Of a stretch of 35,617 nucleotides of DNA, positions 3,782-20,938 are shown piece after piece. This DNA comes from a virus. The notes under the pieces were generated by a model. It had not been told where the DNA came from. It was given only the letters and a program-made list of their open reading frames with translations, and did no database searches. The stretch spans positions 1 through 35,617 of the IMG/VR virus record IMGVR_UViG_3300042923_000422. One strand, written 5' to 3'. The position numbers and the translations under genes were made by a program. The first letter of the stretch is position 1. Each line of letters starts with the position of its first letter.

Positions 3782-3818
3782 AGTGCCTAAGAGTTCGCAC
3801 TATTGAGCCTGATACGTG

Positions 3819-3856
3819 CTATAACCTCCAACGAATCAGGTTCTCAATTGTGAGAA
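3819..3856 (-). promoter_or_regulatory. Repressor promoter with operator OL
   Basis: On the minus strand TTGAGA (3842-3847), a 17-bp spacer and TTATAG (3819-3824) form a good promoter for the repressor gene. Its -35 lies inside the perfect inverted repeat TTCTCAATTGTGAGAA at 3841-3856, so a protein bound there would block RNA polymerase or, if positioned as an activator, touch it. Confidence 0.7.
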
Positions 3857-3889
3857 ACCGAAGTTCCACAGATCTGCCGTATCAGGCGG

Positions 3890-3932
3890 TAGACAGCGGA
3901 CTCTGCGCGGCGTACATTCTCATTTATGAGAA
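3890..3932 (+). promoter_or_regulatory. Early rightward promoter with operator OR over a leaderless start
   Basis: TAGACA (3890-3895), a 17-bp spacer and TACATT (3913-3918) form the early promoter. The inverted repeat TTCTCATTTATGAGAA at 3917-3932 overlaps its -10 and the ATG at 3926. The ATG is 7 nt after the -10, so the transcript should start at or next to the start codon, giving a leaderless mRNA. The two operators share the half-site TTCTCA with a 4-bp gap and are 76 bp apart. Confidence 0.75.
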
Positions 3933-5419: not shown

Positions 5420-5677
5420 ATGAGTGAAACCATCAGCGCCGACTACTGCGACGACCTCGGTGGCGTCGTCATCTGCGGCACCCACATGGAGGAAGCCCAC
5501 CGGACGTCAGAGGGGGAACGCTGGTGCTTCACGTGCCGGAAGCGTCACGAGTTCTGGTGGGTCGTCATGGCGCCGGTCGGGATCAGCTACTACGGCCCGA
5601 GCGCACACATGGAAGGTGTGCGGCGTGACTGCACCGACCTGTTCCCGGGGTGGTACCGGCAGGCGGTCGACGAATGA
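5420..5677 (+). CDS. 85-residue protein with a Cys/His cluster
   Basis: ATG 5420 is preceded by GGGGAG. The product contains VICGTHMEEAH and CFTCRKRHEFWW, giving C-x2-C and His residues that could bind zinc, then an aromatic-rich second half ending GWYRQAVDE. It is soluble, with no catalytic signature. Its stop overlaps the next start (ATGA), beginning a new set of coupled early genes after the structured non-coding region. Confidence 0.65.
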   Translation: MSETISADYCDDLGGVVICGTHMEEAHRTSEGERWCFTCRKRHEFWWVVMAPVGISYYGPSAHMEGVRRDCTDLFPGWYRQAVDE

Positions 5678-5835
5678 AACGCGACGACCTGGCGTGGGTT
5701 GACGACAAGCCCGGATGGATTCGCCGTGAACGCAACCACACCCTCCACGACGCCATCCTCTACGGGCTCATAACAGCCCTCACCCTCCACGCCATCTTCC
5801 TTGTGGCGTTCTCACCAAACCGGAGAAACCGATGA
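5674..5835 (+). CDS. 53-residue single-span membrane protein
   Basis: ATG 5674 overlaps the previous TGA. A charged N-terminal half (RDDLAWVDDKPGWIRRERN) precedes one hydrophobic segment at about residues 28-47 (AILYGLITALTLHAIFLVAF) and a basic tail. By the positive-inside rule both ends are basic, so topology is unclear. Function unknown. Confidence 0.6.
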   Translation: MKRDDLAWVDDKPGWIRRERNHTLHDAILYGLITALTLHAIFLVAFSPNRRNR

Positions 5836-15656: not shown

Positions 15657-15811
15657 CCGAACAGACCCGCGAGACCACGATTCACGACGTCGTCCACTTC
15701 ATCCTCAAGGGCAACTGTCCCGACTGCTTCCACCCGGAATGTCTCGCGCGGGTAGATGTCGTCGAGCACTTGATGCGCGTACTCGAAGCGGAGGCAAACG
15801 GTGTCGGCTGA
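15653..15811 (+). CDS. 52-residue zinc-type protein
   Basis: ATG 15653 overlaps the previous stop. It contains a helical N-terminus with His residues, then NCPDCFHPECLARV, a C-x2-C-x4-C motif, and an amphipathic helix. It overlaps the next gene by 11 nt. Function unknown. Confidence 0.6.
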   Translation: MTEQTRETTIHDVVHFILKGNCPDCFHPECLARVDVVEHLMRVLEAEANGVG

Positions 15812-16427
15812 ACAGAACGAACTATTGGATGCGGTCGACGCACTTACGAAGCCGGGGGTGTTGCATCACACGATTCAGGATTCCCGGTTCACGTGTGTCG
15901 TGTTCGACACGCCCTTGTTGGACCGGTTGGAGAACGAGATCCGGTTCTCCCTCAGCCGGGAAGGCAGCAAGTCGCTCCCGAATCAGCGGGTACCGATCAA
16001 CTCCGGCGCCCTCCACCTGTTCATGCGTATCAGTTCGCAGATCACGGACTGGGCGCATGACGCGAAAGCGACGGTGCATAAGGGTGACCCGGGGCGGACG
16101 TTGCGGGCATGGTATGTGGCGTGGACGCAGACGGAACGGGAACCGCAGAACGTTGCAGCACGGGCGCGTCTGCTCACCGGATGGGAAGCATCCATCCGTA
16201 GGGAGATTGAACCACCCCGACAGAAAGACCTCCCCGACCCGTGTCCTACATGTGGTGCGTCGGAGTGGTGGAGGGATGGGGAACGATACCCACGCCCCCT
16301 TGTCGTCGAATCACCCCGGAACCCCGACAAGTCCCTGATCGACGAGTCCACTGCTCATTGTCGTGCGTGCGACAAGCGGTGGGGCGCACGAGAACTCGCC
16401 TACGAACTCGAAACCAGGGAGGGGTGA
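15801..16427 (+). CDS. 208-residue phage protein with C-terminal zinc ribbon
   Basis: GTG 15801 lies 11 nt inside the previous gene. Residues 1-135 are helical (TKPGVLHHTIQDSRFTCVVF, NQRVPINSGALHLFMRISSQ) and resemble a family often seen in actinophage early regions (I recall it as DUF7341-like; not checked). Residues 148-195 hold two cysteine pairs, CPTCGASEWW and CRACDKRWG, separated by a 40-residue insert, a split zinc ribbon. It may bind nucleic acid. It ends two bases before the antisense gene's stop. Confidence 0.7.
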   Translation: MSAEQNELLDAVDALTKPGVLHHTIQDSRFTCVVFDTPLLDRLENEIRFSLSREGSKSLPNQRVPINSGALHLFMRISSQITDWAHDAKATVHKGDPGRTLRAWYVAWTQTEREPQNVAARARLLTGWEASIRREIEPPRQKDLPDPCPTCGASEWWRDGERYPRPLVVESPRNPDKSLIDESTAHCRACDKRWGARELAYELETREG

Positions 16428-17709: not shown

Positions 17710-17738
17710 TTGCATACGAACGTTCGTGTGTGTATAAT
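17710..17738 (+). promoter_or_regulatory. Near-consensus late promoter with internal palindrome
   Basis: TTGCAT (17710-17715), exactly 17 bp, TATAAT (17733-17738): the best sigma-70-type promoter in the window. Its spacer contains the perfect 12-bp palindrome ACGAACGTTCGT (17716-17727), with further symmetric bases outside it. The half-sites GAAC/GTTC resemble those of LexA boxes but abut with no 4-bp gap, so a phage regulator is more likely than LexA. Confidence 0.8.
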
Positions 17739-17744
17739 CAGCCA

Positions 17745-17915
17745 TAGGTCGCTTCCGCATGCCCGGGAACGGCCTTTCCTGTTCTCCCCGCTGAGCGAGA
17801 CCACCGCCGAAACGGGTTCGAGAAGGGCCCGACGTAGCAGCCGGCCGCATCAACAAACACGCCGTGGCGTGCGAGAGCCTGACCCGACACAACCGGGTCA
17901 GGCTCTCACCCTTTC
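17745..17915 (+). ncRNA. Short leader RNA between late promoter and terminator
   Basis: Transcription from 17710-17738 should begin near 17745 and meet the terminator at 17873-17907, giving an RNA of about 165-170 nt. The only small frame inside starts at ATG 17759 and has 11 codons. This geometry matches lambda's pR'-6S RNA-tR' unit, in which a phage antiterminator allows read-through into late genes. The RNA and its function are inferred from the DNA. Confidence 0.5.
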
Positions 17916-17917
17916 AC
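17873..17917 (+). terminator. Strong terminator 134 bp after the late promoter
   Basis: GAGAGCCTGACCCG (17873-17886) pairs perfectly over 14 bp with CGGGTCAGGCTCTC (17894-17907), 7-nt loop, followed by ACCCTTTCACTTT. The stem is very stable; the T-tract is imperfect, which would suit a terminator that can be overridden. Confidence 0.75.
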
Positions 17918-17979
17918 TTTCCCTGTGTACGCGCCCCGCGCTTTCCGGGGGAGTGTGCACCCAACCATGGGGGTACCTC

Positions 17980-20845: not shown

Positions 20846-20918
20846 ACTCTCGTCGTCCAACTTGGCAGGATGCCCGGCTCTGACCCGGTCGATCGTGGTT
20901 CGAATCCATGCGAGAGTG
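20846..20918 (+). tRNA. tRNA-Gln(CTG)
   Basis: A full cloverleaf can be drawn over 73 nt: acceptor ACTCTCG (20846-20852) with CGAGAGT (20911-20917), D arm GTCC/GGAT, anticodon stem (20873-20877 with 20885-20889, one mismatch at the base) enclosing CTCTGAC with anticodon CTG at 20880-20882, a 4-nt variable loop, and T arm CGTGG/CCATG with loop TTCGAAT. The discriminator is G, as in glutamine tRNAs. CCA is not encoded. Phage tRNAs supplement host decoding, here of CAG codons. Confidence 0.85.
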
Positions 20919-20938
20919 CAATTCCCTTCGACACTGTT

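What the first reader, a model, noticed from the sequence alone, without database searches (positions are those of the whole stretch)
17710..17917. Promoter-leader RNA-terminator unit resembling lambda pR'-tR' at the early/late boundary
Seen: a near-consensus promoter (TTGCAT-17-TATAAT) followed 134 bp later by a perfect 14-bp hairpin terminator, with no convincing gene between, immediately before the late operon. Known: in lambda this geometry makes 6S RNA until Q antiterminates. Inferred: an early product, such as the WhiB-like protein, RHH-HTH or 73-residue HTH protein, may allow read-through here. No Q homologue is recognisable. The palindrome ACGAACGTTCGT inside the spacer hints at an additional repressor.
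Basis: partly seen in the sequence, partly recalled or inferred. Interest (0 to 1): 0.75.

Follow-up and report, generated by a model that had tools for sequence, protein, structure and literature searches.

The report
Possible Q-like late-gene switch in actinophages
Just before its late genes this phage of a soil-type actinobacterium carries a promoter followed at once by a stop signal for transcription and a folded leader RNA, and related phages repeat the layout next to a gene for an unstudied zinc-binding protein that may be what lets transcription through, a possible answer to how such phages switch on their late genes.

Summary
The promoter (17710-17738) and the perfect 14-bp hairpin (17873-17907) exist and are each unique in the window. 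Comparison with relatives shows that the terminator-like element is a different hairpin, H1 (17747-17774, then TTTCCTGTTC), directly after the start site. The order promoter, short hairpin, strong terminator recurs in diverse actinophages and prophages, with no promoter-like site after the terminator. It goes with one early gene: DUF7341/DUF7340 (PF24030/PF24029; window 15801-16427), a ~200-aa protein with a four-cysteine zinc ribbon. With this gene as independent bait, 21 of 32 loci have a strong terminator downstream, 16 of them 38-98 nt after its stop codon, against 2 of 32 upstream controls. This is the geography of lambda Q and pR'-tR', with a protein that shows no detectable relation to Q. 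I propose antitermination by the DUF7341/7340 protein; that step is inferred. Main rival: H1 simply ends the early operon. Che8, Llama (M. smegmatis) and Footloose (Microbacterium) make it testable.

The parts
15801..16427 (+). DUF7341 (PF24030) + DUF7340 (PF24029) gene, 208 aa, C-terminal zinc ribbon (CPTC...CRAC); candidate antiterminator, positional analogue of lambda Q
   Evidence: Pfam 1.5e-10 and 1.9e-4; 4 Cys, W and P invariant in 27 homologues; lies 0.2-3 kb upstream of the late operon in 28 of 29 records
17710..17738 (+). late promoter TTGCAT-17-TATAAT
   Evidence: sequence; only TATAAT in the window; same promoter class in L005, L009, L012, L013
17716..17727 (.). palindrome ACGAACGTTCGT in the spacer, candidate operator
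   Evidence: conserved in L009, L012, L043
17747..17774 (+). H1: promoter-proximal hairpin (stem GGTCG-TTCC/GGAA-CGGCC), terminator-like
   Evidence: (d -2.3 here; relatives mostly above 0), fold; compensatory change against L006 and L011
17775..17784 (+). T-rich tract after H1 (TTTCCTGTTC)
   Evidence: TTTC directly after the stem in most relatives
17784..17822 (+). P1 of the leader RNA (CTCCCCG...CGGGTTCGAG)
   Evidence: covariance model R1, window 64 bits, E 5e-11; covariation
17826..17846 (+). P2 of the leader RNA (GGCC...AGCAGCCGGCC)
17859..17871 (+). P3, variable small hairpin
   Evidence: fold; present with different sequence in relatives
17873..17907 (+).
   Evidence: equivalent helix in 16 relatives, mostly with a different sequence, all five P4a pairs standard
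17922..17965 (+). hairpin just before the ribosome-binding region of the first late gene (GTGTACGCGCCCC...GGGGGAGTGTGCAC)
   Evidence: fold; similar in L003, L005, L006
17980..18201 (+). first late gene, 73-aa HTH-like protein, beyond both hairpins
   Evidence: 89% identical in L002
18188..19339 (+). MRE11-type exonuclease gene, second late gene, used as bait

Best explanation
The region is the late-operon control unit of a tailed actinophage. Transcription starts at about 17745 from the 17710-17738 promoter and is expected to stop, or be held, at the promoter-proximal hairpin H1 (17747-17782), giving a very short RNA of about 35-40 nt. Late in infection RNA polymerase is changed so that it passes H1, makes the structured leader P1-P4 and goes on into the HTH-MRE11-terminase operon. 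The most likely agent is the early DUF7341/DUF7340 zinc-ribbon protein, acting as antiterminator: it would load at the promoter or on the 5' hairpin of the nascent RNA. Shown by comparison: the promoter, H1, the leader RNA, and the gene association. Inferred: that H1 terminates, that read-through is regulated, and that this protein does it. The role of P1-P4 is open; it may help read-through further on, protect the mRNA or control translation.
For: MRE11-bait set of 31 loci: best terminator score median 16.6 against -12.5 in shuffles; above 10 in 71% against 4%. DUF7341-bait set of 32 loci, many without the MRE11 gene: d above 10 in 21/32 downstream of the gene against 2/32 upstream and 4% of shuffles; 16 terminators start 38-98 nt after the stop codon. 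Promoter-like scores are high before the terminator (mean 13.2) and low after it (9.3), at -400 (9.7) and in shuffles (11.1); paired p 4e-9. Among MRE11-bait loci, a terminator goes with the DUF7341 gene: 26/29 above d 0 with it, 7/21 without; Fisher p 5e-5. Pre-terminator leaders fold better than shuffles (39 loci, mean z -1.56, p 1e-9) and share a motif about 13-21 nt after the -10 (log-likelihood 85 against at most 56 in shuffles). The leader RNA covaries.
Against: In the window itself H1 scores only d -2.3 and has a short T run, so termination there is not certain. The d score was made for E. coli. A terminator just after the last early gene is also what a simple end-of-operon terminator would look like. 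The predicted structure of the DUF protein matches no solved structure and its profile finds no Q protein in the PDB. Eleven of 32 independent loci lack a good terminator within 730 nt. In the window the DUF7341 gene is 1.3 kb from the promoter, not adjacent. No expression data were available.
Confidence: 0.5

Rival explanations
1. H1 is an ordinary terminator that ends the early operon. The promoter just before it is weak or serves something else, and late genes are driven by an undetected, phage-specific promoter further downstream that the DUF7341/7340 protein or another factor activates.
For: Terminators cluster just after DUF7341, the last early gene. Late promoters recognised with a phage activator need not look like sigma-70 sites.
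Against: A promoter-like site lies before the terminator in most loci and none with score 13 or more lies in the 128 nt after it. In the window class the promoter-H1 unit is far from the DUF7341 gene but still intact. A conserved structured leader directly follows H1 in the same orientation.
Confidence: 0.25
2. The promoter and H1 form a stand-alone small RNA gene (about 35-100 nt) that acts in trans; the leader P1-P4 is a separate cis element of the late mRNA.
For: Short hairpin plus strong terminator directly after a promoter is the anatomy of a small RNA gene. The pre-terminator part shares a motif.
Against: The short leaders are very diverse in sequence although position and architecture are kept. 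The late operon would then lack a recognisable promoter.
Confidence: 0.12
3. Read-through of H1 is intrinsic: the 5' hairpin is a put-like element that modifies RNA polymerase without a phage protein, and DUF7341/7340 does something else, for example acts as activator or repressor of the promoter.
For: A stable hairpin precedes H1 in most loci. HK022 putL lies just downstream of its promoter and needs no phage factor (PMC9378689).
Against: The leader P1-P4 is transcribed after H1 and cannot help there. The terminator goes with the DUF7341 gene, which a protein-free element would not need.
Confidence: 0.08
4. Chance or annotation artefact: unremarkable GC-rich hairpins and one AT-rich hexamer.
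For: In the window alone the promoter -35 is poor and H1 is borderline.
Against: All comparative tests exceed shuffles and controls.
Confidence: 0.03

Closest known systems
lambdoid Q antitermination: pR'-tR' late promoter/terminator with Q (lambda, 21)
   Same: Last early region encodes a roughly 200-aa regulator; one late promoter followed within tens to hundreds of nt by a terminator; late operon lies beyond it. The assay promoter-tR'-reporter is described for 21Q (PMC6606751).
   Different: The protein shows no detectable homology to Q; terminator is nearer the start site (H1 at about +3 in the window); a Q-binding element and a -10-like pause element were not identified; a structured leader follows the terminator.
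HK022 put RNA
   Same: Folded RNA element at the 5' end of a phage transcript next to a terminator.
   Different: put is about 70 nt, two stem-loops, protein-independent, in early operons (PMC9378689). Here the hairpin before H1 is shorter and variable, and a protein gene goes with the unit.
lambda N/nut
   Same: If the 5' hairpin before the terminator is the recognition site, an RNA-hairpin-binding phage protein would load on the nascent RNA as N does at boxB (own knowledge).
   Different: No boxA or arginine-rich peptide recognised; late rather than early operon; no test of RNA binding.
PF24030 DUF7341 / PF24029 DUF7340, PHROG 1467
   Same: The window protein is a member by profile.
   Different: These families have no assigned function and no paper in the held library names them.

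Membership tests
lambda Q-type antitermination unit | promoter followed by a promoter-proximal intrinsic terminator before the late operon | tested here: met
   met for the group; borderline for the window's own H1 (d -2.3)
lambda Q-type antitermination unit | homologue of a Q protein | tested here: not met
   profile search of PDB sequences found no Q protein; Foldseek PDB no match; PHROG 1467 has no function
lambda Q-type antitermination unit | regulator gene is the last conserved early gene, just upstream of the late promoter | tested here: met
   28 of 29 records with PF24030 have it 0.2-3 kb upstream of the late operon, same strand; 16 of 32 independent loci have a terminator 38-98 nt after it
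lambda Q-type antitermination unit | -10-like sequence in the initial transcribed region causing a sigma-dependent pause, and a Q-binding element | tested here: inconclusive
   by eye only: TAGG motif after the -10 in the window class (CATAGGT, CCTAGGT, CTTAGGT) is not a consistent TAnnnT; no systematic test
lambda Q-type antitermination unit | short RNA without the factor, read-through with it | not testable with these tools
   needs transcription assays or RNA-seq
HK022 put | about 70-nt RNA of two stem-loops that works without a phage protein | tested here: inconclusive
   one stable hairpin before H1 in most loci; P1-P4 lies after H1; activity not testable
known Rfam family | leader RNA matches an Rfam covariance model | tested here: not met
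   no family hit in the window-type leaders searched (window and L003 also at E up to 10)
DUF7341/DUF7340 (PF24030, PF24029) | profile match | tested here: met
   1.5e-10, above the Pfam cut-off for DUF7341; 1.9e-4, below the cut-off for DUF7340

The most novel reading that the evidence does not exclude
DUF7341/DUF7340 proteins are a previously unrecognised class of phage antiterminators, unrelated to Q and N, that control late genes of many actinophages (Mycobacterium, Gordonia, Arthrobacter, Microbacterium and others) by loading at a promoter whose transcript carries a 5' hairpin directly before an intrinsic terminator; in the window's clade a conserved P1-P4 leader RNA is an added part of the mechanism.
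Probability: 0.4. Interest if true: 0.87.

Novelty: new variant of a known kind. Interest (0 to 1): 0.72.

Why it matters
I found no paper in the held library that describes antitermination in actinophages or names DUF7341/DUF7340. If right, this gives a named protein family a function, supplies a missing late switch for phages of M. smegmatis and other actinobacteria, and suggests that the promoter-terminator-antiterminator logic of lambda Q arose again with another protein. It is directly testable in phages kept in collections (Che8, Llama, Footloose, Kukla).

Tried and rejected
2) Direct DNA search in phage and plasmid records: no match. 3) The spacer palindrome as immunity operator: rejected, since the switch region 3782-3932 has a different palindrome twice. 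4) Palindromes as a general feature of these promoters: only weakly supported (45 promoters, p 0.03; clear in about 12). 5) Rfam identity of the leader: none; the window hits at E up to 10 are chance. 6) RNAalifold on MAFFT alignments of the whole leader failed, so helices were taken from single folds, tested with a covariance model and counted. 7) DUF7341 alignment as a DNA-pattern query failed for lack of a conserved stretch, so Pfam searches of genomes were used. 8) Leader model R1 in 400 Microbacteriaceae genomes: nothing; without a positive control this is weak. 9) Structural match of the DUF protein to a known transcription factor: none in the PDB; only other actinophage proteins in BFVD.

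Full report
WHAT IS THERE. The promoter TTGCAT-17-TATAAT (17710-17738), the palindrome ACGAACGTTCGT (17716-17727) and the 14-bp hairpin (17873-17907) are in the sequence. The window is 62.7% GC. TATAAT occurs once in it, on either strand, and this is the only TTGnnn site with a good -10 at the right distance; the hairpin is the only perfect one with arms of 12 bp or more. The -35 matches only TTG (one search misses the site). The window is a 35.6-kb virus record; its MRE11-type gene is 73% identical to that of Microbacterium phage Footloose, so the host is probably a Microbacterium or a near relative (inference).

WHAT RELATIVES SHOW. With the MRE11 gene as bait, 80 related viral loci were fetched. 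Upstream of that gene the close relatives keep one layout: a promoter, a hairpin directly followed by TTTC..., a conserved RNA of about 105-160 nt, then the small HTH gene and the MRE11 gene. Promoter sequences come in several types on nearly the same leader RNA (for example L003 and L005), so the parts are swapped as modules.

THE LEADER RNA. Four helices, P1-P4, are seen in single folds. A covariance model of P1-P2 finds the window (64 bits) and 17 other contigs at E below 1e-6, all at this place. Pair counts exceed shuffles and slid controls: 85% of cells paired against 78% and 29-54%; covariation score 0.212 against 0.121 and at most 0.076 (the alignment was fitted to the structure, so this leans towards it). 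P4 was segmented by hand: all five P4a pairs are standard in 17 of 17 sequences and each occurs as two to four pair types. In most members P4 has an AGC/NGG internal loop and, in one subtype, a GUAAAG-like apical loop. Rfam has no match.

THE TERMINATOR IS ELSEWHERE. I scored hairpins followed directly by a T-rich tract (d'Aubenton-Carafa score with RNAfold energies). In 31 MRE11-bait loci the best score has median 16.6 against -12.5 in dinucleotide shuffles; 71% against 4% exceed 10. In the window the best site is H1, 17747-17774, d -2.3, whose stem varies with compensation in L006 and L011. P4 scores -4.2 in the window, -5.9 in L016 and -28 to -54 elsewhere. So H1 is the conserved terminator-like element. 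The window's own copy is a weak example.

THE GENE THAT GOES WITH IT. The window gene 15801-16427 matches DUF7341 and, more weakly, DUF7340. PF24030 is found in 29 of 50 related records; 28 of the 29 lie 0.2-3 kb before the late operon on the same strand. A divergent set with the TTGACA-type promoter (L003, L007, L014, L017) has a homologue in the same place (E 1e-23 to 1e-29 with a profile of alignment A5, which includes these four sequences). Twenty-seven homologues share four cysteines, a tryptophan and a proline. Among MRE11-bait loci 26/29 with the gene but 7/21 without it have d above 0 (Fisher p 5e-5).

INDEPENDENT TEST. DUF7341 as bait in about 800 actinobacterial genomes plus named phages gave 32 loci. 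Downstream of the gene 21/32 have d above 10, upstream 2/32, shuffles 4%; 16 terminators start 38-98 nt after the stop codon. Examples: Footloose gp62, then TTCCCCACCGTCCTCCGGGCCTGGTGGGGTTTTTTG; Kukla gp83; Llama gp101 and Che8 gp100, M. smegmatis phages (in Che8 one gene lies between). Before the terminators promoter-like scores are high, after them low (13.2 against 9.3, paired p 4e-9; 9.7 at -400; 11.1 in shuffles). This favours a promoter that must be read through the terminator over a terminator that merely ends the early operon, but does not prove it.

BETWEEN PROMOTER AND TERMINATOR. The 39 leaders in which this stretch is separate from H1 fold better than shuffles (mean z -1.56, p 1e-9), often as one composite hairpin (H0). 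A de novo motif (about GTGTCTCNAAA) scores 85 against at most 56 in shuffles, and 34 of 44 best sites start 13-21 nt after the -10. The -10 used as anchor was picked by hand, so the positional statistic is somewhat optimistic. This hairpin is a candidate loading site on the nascent RNA (inference). In the window and its nearest class H0 and H1 appear to be one hairpin.

MECHANISM AND COMPARISON. The geography, a regulator gene at the end of the early region, a promoter, a terminator within about 100 nt, then the late operon, is that of lambda Q with pR'-tR'. In that system Q loads at the promoter and makes polymerase resistant to terminators (PMC6606751). The DUF7341/7340 protein is not recognisably a Q: no PDB relative by profile or fold (model pLDDT 83.7) and its best matches in BFVD are other, mostly actinophage, proteins of unknown function. 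So it works like a Q unit at best, and is not a member of the Q family on present evidence. HK022 put shows that RNA alone can do it (PMC9378689), but P1-P4 is made only after H1. I give 0.5 to antitermination by the DUF7341/7340 protein, 0.25 to an early-operon terminator with another late promoter, 0.12 to a small RNA gene, and 0.08 to a put-like element.

NOVELTY. No paper in the held library names DUF7341 or DUF7340 or describes antitermination in actinophages as far as my searches show; subscription journals are mostly not held. I rate it a new variant of a known kind.

Noticed in passing
L024:5152-5187; L021 and Footloose L084:3104-3157 have the same motif: An abiF RNA (RF03085, 43 bits, in L024) sits in the late leader of phages, just before the small HTH gene. 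A solitary phage copy could be a decoy for AbiF (Abi_2) defence.
   Followed up: partly
L020 (about 5560-5780), L084:2897-2981, L021, L024, L047: tRNA or tmRNA-like genes are inserted in the late leader between P4 and the HTH gene (Footloose: annotated tRNA-Leu; the others read by eye).
   Followed up: no
L055, L057, L060, L064 upstream of the MRE11 gene: Loci mostly without a DUF7341-like gene have a different, strongly structured-looking leader (AGTTTCC...GACGC...AAGGG.ATTCC...CTGCTCATC...GGATTCACTT). Possible second RNA family.
   Followed up: no
L046, L097, L104, L105 late promoters: Palindrome TTACACGCGTGTAA (or CGCT in the centre) overlaps the -35 region in several late promoters; possibly one shared regulator site.
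   Followed up: partly
window 3841-3856 and 3917-3932: Two copies of TTCTCAnnnnTGAGAA between divergent HTH genes: likely immunity operators; the second overlaps the start of the 3926 gene.
   Followed up: no
window 20846-20919: tRNA-Gln (CTG) in the late region before the terminase gene.
   Followed up: no
window 17759-17794: A possible 11-codon open frame (ATGCCCGGG...CGCTGA) runs across H1; no conservation seen by eye.
   Followed up: no
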